From a virus, in the IMG/VR virus record IMGVR_UViG_3300025131_000507, positions 1 through 21,289 of that record: a stretch of 21,289 nt of DNA; one strand, written 5' to 3'. The number at the start of each line of letters is the position of its first letter. Within the stretch, counting starts at the first letter, position 1. This document shows, one piece after another, positions 3,386 through 11,227 of this stretch. The notes under the pieces were generated by a model. That model was given only the letters and a program-made list of their open reading frames with translations, had not been told where the DNA came from and made no database searches. Position numbers and translations under genes: made by a program.

Positions 3386-3937
3386 ATGCAAAACTTATTT
3401 GTAATAGAAGATTTTTACACTGCTGAAAATTTTGGCTTAATGTCTAATTTTCAAAGAACGTGTAACATGAAAGGTTTACATGTCCCTCAAAATATTTATT
3501 ATCCCTCAAGACTAGAAGCCTTCCCTACATGGGAATCTGATGATTTTGAAAAAGATCAAATAGAATACAACCTTACAGAAAAAACTTTAATTCAAAAAAC
3601 AGAGTTTAAAATTAAAAAAATTAAATCTTTTTTTAGAAAAGTATTAACTTCTGAACTTTTAAAATCCCCCTACAAAGGAAGAAATGAGTCCCTTGTGCAT
3701 CAAGACTCCGACAATTTTGATTGGGCCGGTGTAGTATATTTTGACAGCTTTAGTATAGAGGATGGAACAAGACTGTATTCATATAGAGAACAAGTAAAGC
3801 CTGATGTTATAATTGGGTCTAAGCCCAATAGATGTATAATTTTTAAAGCTGCCTTATTTCATTCGGCGGGAATAGATTGGAATAAAGATTCTAGGACTGT
3901 GCAAACATTTTTTTTAGAAACGGATAAGAATGTTTGA
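3386..3937 (+). CDS. 2-oxoglutarate/Fe(II)-dependent oxygenase-like protein
   Basis: The 183-aa protein ends in a jelly-roll-like segment with the dioxygenase facial triad: H105-Q-D107, then the distal H159 in LFHSAG, and R170 in SRTVQTFFL at the usual distance for the 2-oxoglutarate carboxylate. The segment WAGVVYFD between them fits the core strand. The N-terminal hundred residues are poorly conserved in appearance. The expected reaction is hydroxylation or a related oxidation of an unknown substrate, coupled to decarboxylation of 2-oxoglutarate. It is first in the seven-gene plus-strand operon and overlaps the next gene by 8 nt. Assignment to the superfamily is confident; the subfamily and substrate are unknown. 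Confidence 0.75.
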   Translation: MQNLFVIEDFYTAENFGLMSNFQRTCNMKGLHVPQNIYYPSRLEAFPTWESDDFEKDQIEYNLTEKTLIQKTEFKIKKIKSFFRKVLTSELLKSPYKGRNESLVHQDSDNFDWAGVVYFDSFSIEDGTRLYSYREQVKPDVIIGSKPNRCIIFKAALFHSAGIDWNKDSRTVQTFFLETDKNV

Positions 3938-4676
3938 AAATAAAATAGAATTTAGCGCTCATGAAATATACGTTAATTTGAAAGACAGTTATCCTATTCC
4001 AGCAAAAAATAATTTACCTGAATGGTATAAAAAATTAGATCATACTTGGCCAAAGAGAACTGTTAAAGGGTGCATGCCTTTTTTAGATTCAATGTCAGCA
4101 GGGTACATTTTAAAATTACCTCAGGACTTTTATGTTAACCACAATTTTACCAACGAAGATGGACAAAAGGATACTACTTTTGCCTGTCCTATGACAGAAG
4201 AAGCGGATCTTTTAAATTTACATTTTGTTAATTTAAACCGACAAGGAAATGAACATCATTCTCCACAACAACTTCAAGGCAGTCCACATCTTGAAAAAAA
4301 TAATAATCAAGGAGTTTTAAAGTTTATGAATCCTTGGAAAATAAAAACTCCTCCCGGATATTCTTGTTTATTTGTCCCTCCTCTTAATAATTCAGATGAT
4401 AGATTTAGTATAATACCTGGGATTGTTGATACCGATACATATGATAAAGAGATAAATTTTCCATTCATCATAAATGGAGATAAGTATGAAACTTTAGAAA
4501 CAACTCTGAAAAAAGGAACCCCTTATGTTCAAGTAATACCTTTTAAAAGAGAGGGTTGGAAAATGGTGATTAAAGGAAAAAAATCAAAAGACCTGGTTAA
4601 AGAAAAATTTGGATTTTCTTTAAAATTTTTACATAAATATAAAACACTATACTGGAATAAAAAATCATGGAGATAG
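3930..4676 (+). CDS. Conserved phage protein of unknown function inside the oxygenase cassette (possibly DUF6065-like)
   Basis: The 248-aa protein is of a type I recall next to oxygenase genes in marine phages. Visible blocks are KGCMPFLDSMSAGYILKLP (46-64), FMNPWKIKTPPGYSCLF (132-148), DTDTYDKEINFPFI (167-180) and GTPYVQVIPFKREGW (196-210). The pattern of beta strands and the late GxPxxQVIPF block suggests a cupin or jelly-roll-like barrel. There is no HxD...H triad like that of its neighbours; HH at 109-110 is the only close His pair. The DUF6065 name is from memory and uncertain. It overlaps the genes on both sides (8 and 10 nt), so it is translated with the oxygenases and may be a partner or substrate-binding protein. 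Confidence 0.6.
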   Translation: MFENKIEFSAHEIYVNLKDSYPIPAKNNLPEWYKKLDHTWPKRTVKGCMPFLDSMSAGYILKLPQDFYVNHNFTNEDGQKDTTFACPMTEEADLLNLHFVNLNRQGNEHHSPQQLQGSPHLEKNNNQGVLKFMNPWKIKTPPGYSCLFVPPLNNSDDRFSIIPGIVDTDTYDKEINFPFIINGDKYETLETTLKKGTPYVQVIPFKREGWKMVIKGKKSKDLVKEKFGFSLKFLHKYKTLYWNKKSWR

Positions 4677-5233
4677 ATGCCTTTATTAGAACGTATAAAA
4701 TCATAGAAAAAAAACCGTTGTCTAAATTTTTAGCTTACGTTGAAAAAACAAACGCTTTTAAGGCAGCCCCTATTGTTACTAAAAAAGGATTACAAGTTAA
4801 TACTAAAGTCAGAGATGTTAAAACGTTATTTTTAAATGATTTAGAAAAGAGTTTAACCAATGTTCATTGGTACAATTTTTTTAATAATTGTTTTTTAAGG
4901 TGTTTGGAAGAGTATAAACGAGAAACTAATTCCGAGTTCCTGCACTATCAAAATAATTTTGAAATGAGTGTTTTAAAATATGATACCAATAATTTTTATA
5001 CATGGCACACAGACCATGGTTTAACTACTCCGAGAACCATAAGTTGCATCTTATTGTGTAATGACGACTATGAAGGTGGAGACCTGACATTTAAATTACC
5101 CAACCACGAAGAGTTTTCCGTTGAAAGTAGAGCCGGTGAATTAATAATGTGGCCCAGTAATTTCATGTATCCTCATTGCGTTAAACCTGTAACCAGTGGA
5201 CATAGAATAACCGTTGTTGGATGGGTGGTATAA
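4667..5233 (+). CDS. Prolyl 4-hydroxylase-type 2OG-Fe(II) oxygenase
   Basis: The 188-aa protein carries the full signature of the prolyl-hydroxylase-like group (Pfam 2OG-FeII_Oxy_3 type, as in PiuC): MSVLKYDTNNFYTWHTDHG with H114 and D116, then R123-x-ISCILL, YEGGDLTF (135-142), AGELIMWPSNFMYPHCVKPV with distal H170, and SGHRITVVGW with R180 for 2-oxoglutarate. Length and order are normal for the family, with an extra N-terminal region of about 95 residues. Family members hydroxylate prolyl residues or other protein side chains; the substrate here is unknown. It overlaps the preceding gene by 10 nt and joins the next through a TAATG stop/start. This is the most typical enzyme of the cassette. 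Confidence 0.85.
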   Translation: MEIDAFIRTYKIIEKKPLSKFLAYVEKTNAFKAAPIVTKKGLQVNTKVRDVKTLFLNDLEKSLTNVHWYNFFNNCFLRCLEEYKRETNSEFLHYQNNFEMSVLKYDTNNFYTWHTDHGLTTPRTISCILLCNDDYEGGDLTFKLPNHEEFSVESRAGELIMWPSNFMYPHCVKPVTSGHRITVVGWVV

Positions 5234-5865
5234 TGAAACATAATGTGTGGCCTTTGTTTTCATCTCCTCTTTTTTCAATTGAAACTGGTTTAAAAAAAAA
5301 TGAATTAAAGAAATTAGAAACAAAATTAAAGAAAGAAAAAACAGTCCATAGTCCAATTAATAAAATTAGTGAGAACCCTGAACAAAACAATTTTCATACT
5401 GGACGAGAAGGGTTGTTACAAAAAGAGGAATATGATACTTTAAAAGACGCAGTGATTAAATCCATAAGGTTTATTAATGATAATTATTTTAAATACAAAA
5501 CTAATTTTATCATAAGTGATTCTTGGGTGGCATGGGCTCCCCCAAAAAGCAGCTGTACTATTCACAGACATCAAAATTGTTTTTTAAGCGGAGTGATTTA
5601 TATTAAAGCAAAAGAAGACTGTGGAGATATTGAATTTGAAAACTTTAATCATAGGGACATCTCAGTAGGGCCTAGACACGGGGACACCCTTTATAATGCA
5701 GAACGTTTTTGGGTAAAGCCTGCCCCTGGGTTATTATTATTGTTTCCCAGTAATATGTATCATAAGATACATGAAAATAATTCAAACGAAGACAGGGTCT
5801 CTGTTTCTTTTGATATTATGCCCACATCTTTCTTAAAGAAATACATTGAAAATAATGAAGTATAA
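5233..5865 (+). CDS. 2OG-Fe(II) oxygenase of the PF13759 type
   Basis: The product from ATG 5233 has 210 aa. This start is chosen because TAATG couples it to the previous gene and it gives the family-like N-terminus MKHNVWPLFSSPLF; an in-frame ATG at 5221 would add four residues. The core reads SWVAWAPP, then IHRHQNCFLSGVIYI with H111-R-H113, CGDIEFEN, a glycine turn at APGLLLLFPSNMYH with distal H177, and EDRVSVSFD with R188. This is the classic phage family with an HxH-type metal motif followed by SGVxY. It is predicted to be an Fe(II) enzyme acting on an unknown substrate. Three other PF13759-type genes lie in the cassette. Confidence 0.8.
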   Translation: MKHNVWPLFSSPLFSIETGLKKNELKKLETKLKKEKTVHSPINKISENPEQNNFHTGREGLLQKEEYDTLKDAVIKSIRFINDNYFKYKTNFIISDSWVAWAPPKSSCTIHRHQNCFLSGVIYIKAKEDCGDIEFENFNHRDISVGPRHGDTLYNAERFWVKPAPGLLLLFPSNMYHKIHENNSNEDRVSVSFDIMPTSFLKKYIENNEV

Positions 5866-6379
5866 ATTAATTAAAAATTTTTTGACACAAGAAGAAATTA
5901 ATCTTTGTACGGATTACTGTAGAATACAACACCGGCAAAACAAATTTAATTTTGATAATCAAAACAGTAATTTTGATTCCAGCTTCTATGGGGATCCTTT
6001 AATGGAATCCATGTTGTTAAACAAAAGAAAGTTGGTTGAAAAACATTCAAAGTTAGAACTGTTACCAACTTATTCTTATTTCAGAGTCTACACCTATAAA
6101 TCAGATTTATCCAAACACACCGATAGACCTTCGTGTGAGATCAGTATTACAGTTCACATTAACTCGGACGGCACACCATGGGAAATATATATGGGTGGTA
6201 AAAAATACAGAACTAAACCAGGAGACGCTGTTTTATATAAAGGTTGTGAAATTGAACATTGGAGAGAACCTTTTGAAGGCGACTGGCATGCGCAGGCTTT
6301 TTTACATTATGTAAATTCTAAGGGACCTCATAAAGATTTGTATAAGGATCAAAGAAGAATGTGGGGAGATAAAAAATGA
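5855..6379 (+). CDS. 2OG-Fe(II) oxygenase (HTDRPSCEIS / HAQAFLHY type)
   Basis: The product from ATG 5855 has 174 aa; a TTG at 5846 would add three residues but has no advantage. The core is LLPTYSYFRVYTYKSDLSKH, then TDRPSCEISITVHI with H88 and D90, PWEIYMGG, KPGDAVLYKGCEIEHWREPF with distal H135, and WHAQAFLHYVN. This arrangement, with an Arg right after HxD and Gln rather than Arg in the last strand, is a recognisable phage and bacterial subgroup in which the 2-oxoglutarate contact differs from the standard. The gene overlaps the previous one by 11 nt and the next by 4 nt (ATGA). The substrate is unknown. Confidence 0.8.
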   Translation: MKYKLIKNFLTQEEINLCTDYCRIQHRQNKFNFDNQNSNFDSSFYGDPLMESMLLNKRKLVEKHSKLELLPTYSYFRVYTYKSDLSKHTDRPSCEISITVHINSDGTPWEIYMGGKKYRTKPGDAVLYKGCEIEHWREPFEGDWHAQAFLHYVNSKGPHKDLYKDQRRMWGDKK

Positions 6380-6939
6380 GTTTTTTAGAAACCATGTTTT
6401 GTGATTCAATATATCATTCAACTCTATCCAACGAAAAAATTAAAAAACAATTATTGAAAATTGTGTACGACTTAGAAGAGAATGTTGAATCAAATAAAAA
6501 AACTAATGAAGGCGGCTATCAAAAAGATTTAAATTGTAGAGATTTATTTTCAGATTTAATATCTGAAGACCTTCATAAATATGAAAGACTTTTAAATTTA
6601 AATAAAAAATTAAAGCTGGATAATTTATGGTGTAATATTAATTACAAAAACAGTTATAATGTATCCCATGTACACCCCGAAGTTCATTTCTCAGGAGTCT
6701 ATTATTTAAAGACGCCAAAAAATTGTGGTAAATTAATTTTTACTAATCCCAATACCTTTGTTAGAATGCATTCTGAAATGGAACAAGCAAGTGAACACCC
6801 TGATTTCAAATCTCATTTTTATATAGAACCCGTTCAAAACCTATTGTTAATCTTTCCTTCTTATTTATTACATGAAGTGGCTATTAACAATTCTAATGAA
6901 AAAAGAATATCCATATCTTTTAATTTATGCATCAAATAA
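6376..6939 (+). CDS. 2OG-Fe(II) oxygenase of the PF13759 type
   Basis: The 187-aa protein is a standard member of the family. It shows a short N-terminal FCDSIYHSTL segment, LWCNINYKNSYNVSHVHPEV with H98-V-H100, FSGVYYLKTP, NCGKLIFTNP, LLLIFPSYLLHEV with distal H166, and NEKRISISFNL with R177. A clear Shine-Dalgarno GGGGAG precedes the ATG, which overlaps the upstream stop. Its downstream neighbour (6927-7400) is a related protein lacking the metal ligands. Family members are uncharacterised phage enzymes often found near tail genes; substrate unknown. Confidence 0.85.
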   Translation: MSFLETMFCDSIYHSTLSNEKIKKQLLKIVYDLEENVESNKKTNEGGYQKDLNCRDLFSDLISEDLHKYERLLNLNKKLKLDNLWCNINYKNSYNVSHVHPEVHFSGVYYLKTPKNCGKLIFTNPNTFVRMHSEMEQASEHPDFKSHFYIEPVQNLLLIFPSYLLHEVAINNSNEKRISISFNLCIK

Positions 6940-7400
6940 ATATATTTACAAACTCCTTATTTTTCACAGACCAAAAAGATTCAGAGTTTAAAAAAGAGAC
7001 GATAAAAACAAAAAGTGTGGATAAGGCAAAGTTTACTGACATGTTAAAAAATTTTGCAGCTGGGTTAGCGAAGAATTATAATATAAGTTTTCAAGATGTC
7101 TTTATAGATAATATAAAATACTATGAAGATTTAAAAGACCAGACAAATTTAAAAATTGTTACAACCGATGTTTTGTTTCAAGGCTTATACATGGTGGATG
7201 TTGATGAAGATTGTGGTTTAATTTTTTTTGAAAGAGATTCCGGAGAGTTTATATGTCACCATACTGATTTTATTCCCCAGTTTAATTTCATAGCCAGAGA
7301 GAATACTATTGTATGTCTTCCTTCAAACATTGATTTTAAATTAAAAGAAAATAAGTCAGATAAAAAAAGACGGTATATTTATTTCACTCTATCCGTTTAA
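6927..7400 (+). CDS. Degenerate PF13759-type oxygenase homologue lacking metal ligands
   Basis: The 157-aa protein aligns by eye with the preceding oxygenase in all core strands: VLFQGLYMVDVDEDCGLIFF against VHFSGVYYLKTPKNCGKLIF, ENTIVCLPSNIDFKL against QNLLLIFPSYLLHEV, and KKRRYIYFTL against EKRISISFNL. The two metal His of the HxH motif are replaced by I77 and T79, and the distal His by F137. The late Arg is kept (148/149). A CHHTD sequence at 110-114 could offer ligands but sits at a different place in the fold. The reading frame is intact, so this is a maintained pseudoenzyme rather than a broken gene. It overlaps the previous gene by 13 nt. A scaffold, regulatory or substrate-binding role is inferred. 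Confidence 0.65.
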   Translation: MHQINIFTNSLFFTDQKDSEFKKETIKTKSVDKAKFTDMLKNFAAGLAKNYNISFQDVFIDNIKYYEDLKDQTNLKIVTTDVLFQGLYMVDVDEDCGLIFFERDSGEFICHHTDFIPQFNFIARENTIVCLPSNIDFKLKENKSDKKRRYIYFTLSV

Positions 7401-7885
7401 AAATAAATAAAATTTACATTGATTCTTGCGTCTTGATCAGTGCATGTTGTGCTGTGATGTTTTTGATGTGATTTAAAAAACAACATTCTATTTTCAATAG
7501 ATTTTATTTTATTGTTTGAAAGTCCTGTGTACCCATTATTGTTGTTAATGTAAAGTATAGCGCTGTTACATTTAGGGTCATCATGATCACGATGCAATGC
7601 GTGTTTTTTTATCTTAGGGGTGTGAGGATAAAAATTACATTTTACTCGAAATAGTTTTTTTATTTCTAATTTTAAAAGAATGGGTCCAAGTAAATTAAGG
7701 GCGGGTTGACTCAGTATCTTTTGATCTTCATATACGGTATGACTTAAATAAAAATTTCCTATAGCATTATCTTTTGGATACGCCACATTATTTACATAGT
7801 ACCAGGGGAAGGTGTTAGTGAGTAAGGTATTTTTTATTTTTAAAAACTCATCTTCGGGTAGAAACTTATCTTTTATTTGAAACAT
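7397..7885 (-). CDS. 2OG-Fe(II) oxygenase (NNNGYT type)
   Basis: The 162-aa protein belongs to a group common in marine phages: an N-terminal FPWYY motif (26-30), FRVKCNFYPHTP (79-90), ALHRDHDDPKCNSAILYINN with H98-R-D100, NNGYTGLS (116-123), IENRMLFFKS (130-139), the distal His at H144 (KHHSTTCTD), and ARINVNFIYF with R154. All features of an active enzyme are present. It is last in the minus-strand operon and overlaps the upstream gene by 13 nt. Its stop codon overlaps that of the plus-strand operon. I see no Shine-Dalgarno, so translation may depend on coupling to the upstream gene. Substrate unknown. Confidence 0.8.
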   Translation of the reverse strand: MFQIKDKFLPEDEFLKIKNTLLTNTFPWYYVNNVAYPKDNAIGNFYLSHTVYEDQKILSQPALNLLGPILLKLEIKKLFRVKCNFYPHTPKIKKHALHRDHDDPKCNSAILYINNNNGYTGLSNNKIKSIENRMLFFKSHQKHHSTTCTDQDARINVNFIYF

Positions 7886-8397
7886 TTTATTAAAATATTA
7901 AGGTTAAAACGAACCGCATCTTTTAAAGGAGGATTACCTTTATGTTCAACCATACTTTTATATACTTTTGCTTGGCCTATTTTATCGACATAAAATTTAT
8001 TGTTAATAAAAGTGCCTCCATCGGTCGTGTGTGGATTATATAATATGCTTAAAAAATCGTCGGTGTATTCGTCCTTATGAAGGTCAGTATGATTTTTAGG
8101 AAAATACATATTCCATAAAAATCTTCTTACTTCATATTTTTTAATGTCTAATTGCTCACAGATTTTTTTAGTAATTTTGTATGCTTCTTTATTAAGAGGT
8201 GAATCAAAAGGTTTTCCATCTTCCAATGATAACACACTAAAACCTCCTCCTCTCCCTGCGAACAAGGGAGGCATTAAGTTCCCGTAGTCTAAACATTTCG
8301 TTAAGTACCATTGATGATAACAAAGTTTATTAATTAAAGCTAAGTTTTCTTCCTTTGATAAAATATCATCAATTAAAGTAACCTCATTAGTATTCAT
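7873..8397 (-). CDS. 2OG-Fe(II) oxygenase-like protein
   Basis: The 174-aa protein has an N-terminal LIDDILSKEENLALINKL segment typical of these small dioxygenases, an unusual Gly-rich stretch AGRGGGFSVLS (47-57), and a core with FLWNMYFPKNHTDLHKDEYT (H107-K-D109), DFLSILYNPH, a glycine-containing strand DGGTFINNKFY, VYKSMVEHKG with distal H152, and VRFNLNILI with R163. Triad and Arg spacing fit an active enzyme. It overlaps both neighbours of the minus-strand operon (11 and 13 nt). Subfamily and substrate are unknown. Confidence 0.75.
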   Translation of the reverse strand: MNTNEVTLIDDILSKEENLALINKLCYHQWYLTKCLDYGNLMPPLFAGRGGGFSVLSLEDGKPFDSPLNKEAYKITKKICEQLDIKKYEVRRFLWNMYFPKNHTDLHKDEYTDDFLSILYNPHTTDGGTFINNKFYVDKIGQAKVYKSMVEHKGNPPLKDAVRFNLNILIKCFK

Positions 8398-8956
8398 ATT
8401 TTATGATTCGTTCTTTCAATAAATCCTCTCGAATCTCTTTTACATCAAAATTAAATGAAATAATAGTTCTTTTTTTATTTGTCTCATTGACTCCTGATCT
8501 ATGTATGACGTGGGCGGGAAATACAATAAAATCCCCTTCCACTACTTTTAATGAAATAGCTCGGTTTAAATTAAGGGGGTCGAGTAGCTGGGTATATTGA
8601 TGATTATCAAATTCTAGATAGTACACACCAGTGAGATTATTAGCGTGAATATGCCACCCATGAGTACCCTGGTTTTCATATTGTTGAAACCATAATTCAT
8701 GTATTTTAATTGTTTTAAAACCTATTTTAGAAACCATCTTAACTAAATGGTCGTGGATATGTTGACCCGCATATTTAACCCAAGGCCTCTCAAAGTCCGA
8801 AGATTGATCCCAGTCTAATTTATGAAAGACATCTTCAAACCCTGTTTTACTATAGTTAGTTTTTGATTGATCAATCAACGATAATAGGCTATTTTTAATG
8901 TTTAAATGATTACTAAAGTGCTCTTTTAAAAGAGGAGTTCCTATGGAAAGATTCAT
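8387..8956 (-). CDS. 2OG-Fe(II) oxygenase of the PF13759 type
   Basis: The 189-aa protein begins with IGTPLLKEHF, the usual short N-terminal strand of this family. The core reads HELWFQQYENQGTHGWHIHA with H102-I-H104, then NNLTGVYYLEF, a longer insertion with LLDPLN, EGDFIVFPAHVIHRS with distal H152, and KKRTIISFNF with R163. It is the first gene of the minus-strand operon, close to a candidate promoter whose -10 box ends only 10 nt before the ATG. No Shine-Dalgarno is visible, so a near-leaderless transcript is possible. Substrate unknown. Confidence 0.8.
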   Translation of the reverse strand: MNLSIGTPLLKEHFSNHLNIKNSLLSLIDQSKTNYSKTGFEDVFHKLDWDQSSDFERPWVKYAGQHIHDHLVKMVSKIGFKTIKIHELWFQQYENQGTHGWHIHANNLTGVYYLEFDNHQYTQLLDPLNLNRAISLKVVEGDFIVFPAHVIHRSGVNETNKKRTIISFNFDVKEIREDLLKERIIKYEY

Positions 8957-9022: not shown

Positions 9023-11227
9023 ATGCTACAAAAAATAGGTTTTTTACCTGGATTCAATAAACAAGTTACTGCTACCGGAGCAGAAGCACAATGGACTGGT
9101 GGGGAAAATGTGCGCTTTAGATATGGTACTCCCGAAAAAATAGGTGGGTGGAATCAATTAGGACAAGATAAATTAACAGGTGCAGCGCGACAGATGCATC
9201 ATATTGTTAATAAAGACTCAGTAAAATTTTCTATTATAGGTACTAACAAAATTTTATATGCGTATACTGGTGGTGTATTTTATGACATTCACCCATTAGT
9301 TAATCCGTCAGGTACAGCCATCTCTAATGCTTTTAGTACAACTAATAATGATCCTGTTGTAACTATTACTGCTACTTCTCATGGTTTTCAAGCTGGAGAC
9401 ATTTGTTTATTTGGTGACAGTTCTACCTTCAGTGCAATAACAAATTCTAATTTTGGATCATCCGATTTTTGTGATAAAAAATTTATGGTTACTACAGTTG
9501 TAGATTCAGATAATTTTAAAATTACAATGGATTCTAATGAAACAGGAAGTGGTGCTACTACTTCTGGAGGTATAACTTATTATAGATACTATCACGTAGG
9601 ACCTGCTGAACAGTTGGGAGCTTATGGTTTTGGTATATCATTATATGGTGGTACAATTTTAGGTTCAACTACTACTACACTAACAGCACCTGGATTAGGC
9701 GACAATGCTTATGGAACAGGTGGCTCAGGAACTACAGTTAATGTTGGAAGTACCACAGGATTTCCTTCTTCAGGAACTAATTATTTTCAAGTAGGAAGTG
9801 AAGAAATTTCTTACACAGGCGTAACAGCCACAAGTTTTACAGGAATTACTAGAGCGGTTAGAGGTTCAACAAGAGCTGCGCACAGTGGTGGAGCTACTAT
9901 TACTAATACATCTAGTTGGACTGGATGGGGTTCTGCAGCATCAAACACTGACAAAACTATTGACCCAGGATTATGGTCCATTGATAATTTAGGAGATAAT
10001 CTTATCGCCTTAATTCATAACAGCGCGGTATTTGAATGGGATTCTGCTGCAAGTAATGCTACATCAACGAGAGCTACTATTATATCTGGAGCCCCAACAG
10101 CATCCAGAGATATGTTAGTATCTACACCTGATCGTCACTTAGTTTTATTTGGAACAGAAACAACGATTGGAGATACATCTACCCAAGATGATATGTTTAT
10201 TAGATTTTCTTCTCAAGAAGATATAAATACATGGGCACCAACAGCAATCAATAGTGCGGGTACACAAAGACTGGCCGCCGGATCACGGATCATGGGAGCT
10301 AAACTTGGTAAATCTGCAATTTATGTATGGACCGATACAGCTTTATTTACCATGAGATTTGTAGGTACTCCGTTTACTTTCGCCTATGATCAAGTAGGTA
10401 CAAACTGTGGATTAATAGGAATGAATGCAGCCGTTGAGGTAGATGGTTCTGCTTACTGGATGTCTGAGAATGGTTTCTTTAAATATAGTGGTAAACTAGA
10501 TTCACTGGACTGTTTGGTTGAAGACTATGTTTATGATGACATTAATAAAACTTCTAACCAATTAATATACTGTGGATTAAATAACTTGTTTGGTGAAATT
10601 ATGTGGTTTTATCCCACTAGTACATCTAATGTAAATGACAGAGCTGTGGTTTATAGTTATTTAGATTCTACAGCAGAGAGACCTATCTGGTTTACAAACG
10701 CGAGTTCAATTTTTAGAAGAACTACTTGGATTGATTCTGCTATTTTTGGTTTACCCCATGCTACAGATTATAATGCTTCTGACGACGCTTCGTTTGATGT
10801 GACGGGAAATACTGAAGGAACCACTATTTATTATGAGCATGAGACAGGGGTAAATTATATTAAAGGAGGAACTACATATGCAGTGCCTTCTAACATTCTT
10901 TCAGGTGATTTTGACATTACTCAAGACCAACAAAGAGGTATTACTTTTAGAGGAGATGGAGAATTTATCATGAGGATCAGTAGATTTATACCAGACTTTA
11001 TTAGTCAAAGTGGAACAGCTATAGTAGAGTTTGATCTTAGAAATTTTTCTAATCAAGCCGCAGTAAGCTCGACATTAGGTCCTTTTAATGTTACAACCAG
11101 CACTACATATCAATCGTGCAGAGCACGAGCGAGGTCTATTGCTGTTAAAGTATCAAACACAGCTATAGATTCAAATTGGAAACTAGGTACATTTAGATTA
11201 GATGTACACGCAGGAGGAAGAAGATAA
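9023..11227 (+). CDS. Large tail nozzle/stabilisation-type virion protein
   Basis: The 734-aa protein starts with MLQKIGFLPGFNKQVTATGA and continues QWTGGENVRFRYGTPEKIGG, a signature I know from marine phage structural proteins. The length and beta-rich repeats (IGTNKILYAYTGGVF, NSAVFEWDS, STPDRHLVLFGTE, GKSAIYVWTDTALFTM, SGKLDSL) fit a beta-propeller tail-tube end protein like T7 gp12 or P22 gp10; that parallel is inferred. Two inserted modules are visible: residues about 97-190 (DPVVTITATSHGFQAGD) and about 239-295 (VGSEEISYTGVTATSF, GITRAVRGSTRAAHSGG). No Shine-Dalgarno is seen before ATG 9023. It ends in TAATG joined to the next gene and directly follows the oxygenase cassette. Confidence 0.7.
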   Translation: MLQKIGFLPGFNKQVTATGAEAQWTGGENVRFRYGTPEKIGGWNQLGQDKLTGAARQMHHIVNKDSVKFSIIGTNKILYAYTGGVFYDIHPLVNPSGTAISNAFSTTNNDPVVTITATSHGFQAGDICLFGDSSTFSAITNSNFGSSDFCDKKFMVTTVVDSDNFKITMDSNETGSGATTSGGITYYRYYHVGPAEQLGAYGFGISLYGGTILGSTTTTLTAPGLGDNAYGTGGSGTTVNVGSTTGFPSSGTNYFQVGSEEISYTGVTATSFTGITRAVRGSTRAAHSGGATITNTSSWTGWGSAASNTDKTIDPGLWSIDNLGDNLIALIHNSAVFEWDSAASNATSTRATIISGAPTASRDMLVSTPDRHLVLFGTETTIGDTSTQDDMFIRFSSQEDINTWAPTAINSAGTQRLAAGSRIMGAKLGKSAIYVWTDTALFTMRFVGTPFTFAYDQVGTNCGLIGMNAAVEVDGSAYWMSENGFFKYSGKLDSLDCLVEDYVYDDINKTSNQLIYCGLNNLFGEIMWFYPTSTSNVNDRAVVYSYLDSTAERPIWFTNASSIFRRTTWIDSAIFGLPHATDYNASDDASFDVTGNTEGTTIYYEHETGVNYIKGGTTYAVPSNILSGDFDITQDQQRGITFRGDGEFIMRISRFIPDFISQSGTAIVEFDLRNFSNQAAVSSTLGPFNVTTSTTYQSCRARARSIAVKVSNTAIDSNWKLGTFRLDVHAGGRR

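What the first reader, a model, noticed from the sequence alone, without database searches (positions are those of the whole stretch)
6927..7400. Metal-dead oxygenase paralogue kept intact next to an active one
Aligned with the adjacent 6376-6939 product, the core strands, the late Arg and the Cys-Gly turn are kept, but all three metal ligands are changed (H to I77, H to T79, distal H to F137). The frame is undamaged and translationally linked. This suggests selection for a non-catalytic role such as heterodimer partner, substrate carrier or regulator, as for other pseudoenzymes. A displaced HHTD at 111-114 leaves a small chance of a rebuilt site.
Basis: partly seen in the sequence, partly recalled or inferred. 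Interest (0 to 1): 0.75.

Follow-up and report, generated by a model that had tools for sequence, protein, structure and literature searches.

The report
Conserved metal-dead oxygenase-fold phage protein
Marine phages related to those of the abundant SAR11 bacteria keep, next to a normal iron-dependent oxygenase gene, a shorter sister gene that has lost all three iron-holding residues yet is preserved intact in related viral contigs, so it has probably become a non-catalytic partner or binding protein.

Summary
ORF 6927-7400 (157 aa) is a degenerate relative of the adjacent TIGR02466/PF13759-type 2OG-Fe(II) oxygenase (6376-6939). The two profiles align at 96% probability. An AlphaFold2 model (pLDDT 73) best matches the PF13759-like structures 2rg4/3bvc (Z 12.8/12.6). 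Orthologues occur in 23 other viral contigs of one HTVC023P-like group (one a fragment). The ligand positions are never H-x-H/D...H: the first two vary (I/L/Q77, T/K/F79), the distal His is invariantly Phe137, and Tyr88 and Arg148 are invariant. Of the other full-length 2OG-like domains in the fetched loci, 268 keep both His and three, of a second possible metal-free family, do not. dN/dS is 0.19-0.30, close to the neighbour's. A rebuilt HHTD site is unlikely: H111 is not conserved. In all 22 contigs with flanks the gene overlaps an active-type PF13759 gene by 4 or 13 nt, on either side. Against a tightly co-evolved pair, the partner is not orthologous in one clade, and in another the dead gene was replaced without it. 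Best reading: a fixed pseudo-oxygenase (solid), acting as a non-catalytic partner of the oxygenase module (inferred).

The parts
6927..7400 (+). Metal-dead DSBH protein, 157 aa (I77, T79, F137 in place of the H-x-H...H ligands; Y88 and R148 kept)
6376..6939 (+). Active-type neighbour, 187 aa, TIGR02466/PF13759 2OG-Fe(II) oxygenase with the H-x-H...H ligand set and the late Arg; its last 13 nt overlap the dead ORF
6927..6939 (+). 13-nt overlap between the two ORFs; no Shine-Dalgarno-like stretch directly before the ATG, which fits coupled re-initiation (inferred)
7155..7163 (+). Codons 77-79 (I-V-T), at the place of the H-x-H metal motif
7335..7337 (+). Codon 137 (Phe), at the place of the distal His; invariant Phe in all orthologues
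7257..7268 (+).
3386..8956 (.). Module of oxygenase-like genes between tail-type genes and the stabilization-protein gene, in which the dead gene always lies

Best explanation
ORF 6927-7400 is a pseudo-oxygenase: a double-stranded beta-helix (DSBH) protein derived from the PF13759 family, which arose once, by an old duplication and divergence within the oxygenase module of a pelagiphage-like lineage. It cannot hold Fe(II) in the normal way. The former metal site carries an invariant Phe at the distal-His position, while the sheet, a Tyr and the Arg of the 2OG pocket are kept. It most likely acts as a non-catalytic DSBH subunit or adaptor: made by coupled translation with an active-type PF13759 oxygenase, it would pair with that enzyme, or with others of the module, to stabilise it, present the substrate or tune it, as the metal-free C-terminal DSBH domain of OGFOD1/Tpa1 is proposed to do inside one chain. 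Shown: homology, ligand loss, fixation, purifying selection, conserved overlap. Predicted: fold. Inferred: no catalysis, coupled translation, and the partner/adaptor role.
For: Homology and fold. Ligand loss in every full-length orthologue (22 contigs plus the window), and among the domain rows of the fetched loci only in this clade and the gp64 type; a 23rd contig holds only the C-terminal part, also with F137. Purifying selection, dN/dS 0.19-0.30 (active-type neighbour 0.13-0.31). In all 22 contigs whose flanks are held it overlaps a gene with the full ligand set by 13 or 4 nt, upstream in 18 and downstream in 4. Single origin. Paired DSBH-type domains occur in this gene set: PHROG 3531 (362 positions) matches the 5846 product in its first half and the 4667 product in its last quarter. 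Precedent for a metal-free DSBH beside an active one: OGFOD1/Tpa1 (PMC4396695).
Against: No complex was modelled or measured. The overlapping gene is not orthologous in L013-L016 (about 35% identity to 6376-6939), and in L008-L010 the dead gene was swapped from about codon 20 onward (64% identity) while the neighbour stayed at 87%. Active-type PF13759 genes in related loci occur without a dead partner. Short overlaps are common in phage operons, so overlap alone does not show physical pairing.
Confidence: 0.5

Rival explanations
1. A free-standing binding protein: the dead DSBH acts alone on a phage or host target (host-takeover factor, inhibitor, or competitor for the substrate of the oxygenases) and sits beside oxygenases only because it was born there.
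For: Decoupling from the neighbour: a non-orthologous neighbour in L013-L016 and allele replacement in L008-L010. Clades differ at about 35% of residues, while the first 20 residues and the turns stay nearly invariant.
Against: Overlap with a gene of complete ligand set survives three gene arrangements.
Confidence: 0.27
2. A virion-associated structural protein: an oxygenase fold reused as part of the tail apparatus, since the module lies between tail-type genes and the stabilization-protein gene.
For: Gene position.
Against: The neighbours in the module are oxygenase-like rather than structural, and no similarity to a virion family was found beyond noise.
Confidence: 0.13
3. A rebuilt or unusual metal site (H112 and D114 with carboxylates such as D91, E94, D95) that still supports catalysis.
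For: H112, D114, D91, E94 and D95 are invariant.
Against: H111 is not conserved (T, Q, A, M or I elsewhere) and there is no second invariant His. HTDF aligns with HPDF/HPNF of the active-type paralogue, so it looks inherited rather than rebuilt. The model puts it in a loop with pLDDT about 60. Distances could not be measured.
Confidence: 0.07
4. A decaying passenger gene, recently inactivated.
For: Long stem branch (2.4 changes per column).
Against: Open in every full-length orthologue, dN/dS 0.19-0.30, many invariant residues, ancestral loss.
Confidence: 0.03

Closest known systems
PF13759 (2OG-FeII_Oxy_5) / TIGR02466 / PHROG 81 2OG-Fe(II) oxygenases
   Same: Predicted fold (2rg4_A Z 12.8, 3bvc_A Z 12.6), late Arg, Tyr and Gly turn, profile-level homology, genomic neighbourhood
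   Different: All three metal ligands absent in every full-length orthologue; shorter; below detection in Pfam, PHROGs and NCBIfam
OGFOD1 / Tpa1 C-terminal DSBH domain (PMC4396695)
   Same: A DSBH without a metal site beside an active 2OG-oxygenase DSBH; its authors propose a role in partner or substrate recognition, stabilisation or oligomerisation
   Different: Eukaryotic and fused in one chain; here separate overlapping phage genes; no sequence relationship was found
HTVC023P gp64-type proteins
   Same: Lie in the oxygenase module of related pelagiphages; low-confidence 2OG-oxygenase-like model; no invariant His
   Different: Not detectably close to the 6927 family (hhalign 1.4%); membership of the DSBH superfamily not established

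Membership tests
PF13759 / TIGR02466 2OG-Fe(II) oxygenases | Score above the curated cut-off | tested here: not met
   No Pfam or NCBIfam hit for 6927-7400; neighbour 6376-6939 scores 91 bits (PF13759) and 112 bits (TIGR02466)
PF13759 / TIGR02466 2OG-Fe(II) oxygenases | Homology of the core region | tested here: met
   Family profile finds active-type paralogues at E 1e-8 to 1e-10; hhalign 96%, 102 columns
PF13759 / TIGR02466 2OG-Fe(II) oxygenases | Double-stranded beta-helix fold | tested here: met
   Predicted only: AF2 model pLDDT 72.9, pTM 0.76; best PDB matches 2rg4/3bvc, Z 12.8/12.6 over 142-144 residues
PF13759 / TIGR02466 2OG-Fe(II) oxygenases | Fe(II) triad H-x-H/D...H | tested here: not met
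   I/L/Q77, T/K/F79, F137 in all full-length orthologues
PF13759 / TIGR02466 2OG-Fe(II) oxygenases | Arg of the last strand (2OG-binding in the superfamily) | tested here: met
   R148 invariant; binding itself not tested
PF13759 / TIGR02466 2OG-Fe(II) oxygenases | Oxygenase activity | not testable with these tools
   Needs purified protein
Pseudoenzymes (as a class) | Homologue of an enzyme family with the catalytic residues lost, kept by selection | tested here: met
OGFOD1/Tpa1-type tandem DSBH proteins | Two DSBH domains in one chain | tested here: not met
   Separate ORFs in every full-length orthologue; no fusion among the ORFs of the fetched loci

The most novel reading that the evidence does not exclude
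Pelagiphage-type viruses have at least twice evolved metal-free oxygenase-fold proteins (the 6927 family and the far more abundant HTVC023P gp64 family) that work as dedicated non-catalytic subunits of a phage 2OG-oxygenase complex.
Probability: 0.2. Interest if true: 0.72.

Novelty: new variant of a known kind. Interest (0 to 1): 0.52.

Why it matters
[quoted passage not shown] They carry clusters of 2OG-Fe(II) oxygenase genes (PMC9599517), and no paper found here gives these a tested function. A fixed, metal-dead paralogue overlapping an active-type one suggests that the module may work as a complex rather than as independent enzymes, which gives a concrete entry point: find what the dead protein binds. 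It also shows that annotation by domain hits misses part of the module, because this protein matches no family in Pfam, PHROGs or NCBIfam.

Tried and rejected
Recent decay: rejected by open frames and dN/dS. Rebuilt HHTD site: not supported. A version in cellular genomes: none found in genome contigs. An annotated phage with an orthologue: none; the only hits are weak, E 0.2, to a 2OG oxygenase gene of a cyanophage. A fused dead-active protein: none among the ORFs of the fetched loci. A sequence-level match of the dead family to a solved structure: none. The gp64 family as a close relative of the dead family: not supported by profile comparison; its model is low confidence (pLDDT 52), so its matches to 2OG oxygenases at Z 6.7-7.7 are only a hint. 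Literature on metal-dead 2OG-oxygenase paralogues in phages: three searches gave nothing relevant, in a library that lacks most subscription papers. Pfam's Mononeg_mRNAcap hit (E 0.06) is noise.

Full report
WHAT WAS CLAIMED. A 157-aa ORF (6927-7400) next to a 2OG-Fe(II) oxygenase gene (6376-6939) was said to be an intact paralogue that has lost all three metal ligands.

SETTING. The window is a 21,289-base virus record. Its 734-aa gene 9023-11227 is a stabilization/virion structural protein (PHROG 3287), about 44% identical to those of pelagiphages HTVC023P and HTVC027P and of phage 023Pt_psg01. Between tail-type genes and this gene lies a module of oxygenase-like genes: 4667, 5221, 6376 and 8387 score above the cut-off as PF13640 or PF13759; 3386, 5846, 7397 and 7873 match mainly PHROGs of mixed labels. 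By inspection each of these keeps an HxD/H...H pattern. Such genes are known in HTVC023P-type phages (eight distinct, non-orthologous 2OG-Fe(II) genes, PMC9599517).

OBSERVATION CHECK. The ORF, start and 13-nt overlap are right. Alone the protein is invisible to Pfam, PHROGs and NCBIfam. Orthologues were found in 22 IMG/VR contigs (62-100% identity), plus a C-terminal fragment in a 23rd. Their profile finds the orthologues of the active-type neighbour at E 1e-8 to 1e-10 and aligns with them at 96% probability. In that alignment I77, T79 and F137 replace H, H and H. The neighbour is a clear TIGR02466/PF13759 protein with a complete ligand set.

MORE THAN CHANCE. In the ORFs of the loci then held, 268 domain rows keep H-(H/D/E)-H. 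All 24 rows of this family lack it (I/L/Q, T/K/F, F), as do three gp64-type rows; 14 rows are partial. Rows include repeat fetches of two contigs, so the 24 rows are 22 contigs. In 14 distinct sequences F137, Y88, R148, N74, H112 and D114 are invariant; H111 is not. Positions 77 and 79 drift while 137 is fixed as Phe, which fits a closed, refilled metal site (inference). dN/dS within clades is 0.19-0.30, against 0.13-0.31 for the neighbour and 0.03-0.20 for the 5846 gene. So the loss is old and the gene is maintained.

FOLD. AF2 (14-sequence alignment) gives pLDDT 72.9 and pTM 0.76, with two helices and then the strand order of a DSBH. The best PDB matches are the PF13759-like 2rg4 and 3bvc (Z 12.8 and 12.6), followed by other 2OG oxygenases; that 2rg4 and 3bvc are relatives of the active-type neighbour is shown by sequence. 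The viral library gives phage 2OG oxygenases. Residues 111-114 lie in the loop before strand 118-122. They align with HPDF/HPNF of the neighbour, so HTDF is probably inherited.

ORIGIN. In a tree of 65 PF13759-type domains the family is one clade (100/100) on a long stem, weakly placed with the 6376 group and other active-type genes of related phages (82/57 and 89/63). The sister group is therefore uncertain.

CONSERVED PAIRING, AND ITS LIMITS. In all 22 contigs whose flanks are held the dead ORF overlaps a gene with a full ligand set: 13 nt upstream (10 contigs), 4 nt upstream (8) or 4 nt downstream (4). In the last class, L013-L016, the neighbour is about 35% identical to 6376-6939 and falls elsewhere in the tree. 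In L008-L010 the neighbour stays 87% identical while the dead gene drops to 64%, from about codon 20 on: a recombination edge whose effect runs past the end of the gene. Pairing with some PF13759 gene is conserved; co-evolution with one particular partner is not. That weakens a specific heterodimer and keeps adaptor models alive. Active-type PF13759 genes in related loci occur without the dead gene.

MECHANISM. Most likely a non-catalytic DSBH partner of the oxygenase module (0.5); next a free-standing binding protein (0.27), a virion part (0.13), a rebuilt metal site (0.07) or decay (0.03). Shown: homology, ligand loss, fixation, selection, overlap. Predicted: fold. Inferred: loss of catalysis, coupled translation, partner role. 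Precedent: the C-terminal DSBH of OGFOD1/Tpa1 lacks a metal site, and its authors propose roles in partner or substrate recognition, stabilisation or oligomerisation (PMC4396695).

A POSSIBLE SECOND CASE. HTVC023P gp64 and relatives (at least 599 stretches in IMG/VR) lie directly before the oxygenase genes in HTVC023P, 023Pt_psg01 and L096. A four-member profile gives a weak match to the PF13759-type profile (52%). No His is invariant among 71 distinct sequences. A low-confidence model (pLDDT 52) has 2OG oxygenases as its 50 best listed matches (Z 6.7-7.7). Suggestive, not established.

VERDICT. A real, well-preserved phage pseudo-oxygenase: a new variant of a known kind. Its function is open but testable.

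Noticed in passing
5846-6379 (177 aa); HTVC023P gp67 at L025:8289-8909; L026:10054-10710: Labelled 'ferrochelatase' in PHROGs 2954/3531 and in the phage records, but with no Pfam match at E <= 1 (so none to ferrochelatase) and with H87-x-D89-R90 and H134-W135-R136 invariant in the family alignment, as in a 2OG-Fe(II) oxygenase. The reported ferrochelatase-oxygenase pairing (PMC9599517) may be two oxygenases.
   Followed up: partly
L025:6536-7039 (HTVC023P gp64), L109:4001-4501 and further loci: Very abundant 167-aa hypothetical protein in front of the oxygenase genes, no invariant His, weak DSBH similarity: possible second metal-free oxygenase-fold family.
   Followed up: partly
L008-L010, from about codon 20 of the dead gene onward: Recombination edge inside the dead gene; the downstream genes 7873 and 7397 also lie on the + strand and in swapped order in these contigs.
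   Followed up: partly
3930-4676 (248 aa): Weak DUF6065 match and PHROG 7084 (unknown function), strongly conserved (81-100%) in the orthologous contigs that cover it; function unknown.
   Followed up: no
7397-7885 and 7873-8397 (- strand): PHROG label 'DNA endonuclease V' (phrog_274) on proteins that by inspection keep H-x-D...H oxygenase-like patterns; the label looks wrong.
   Followed up: no
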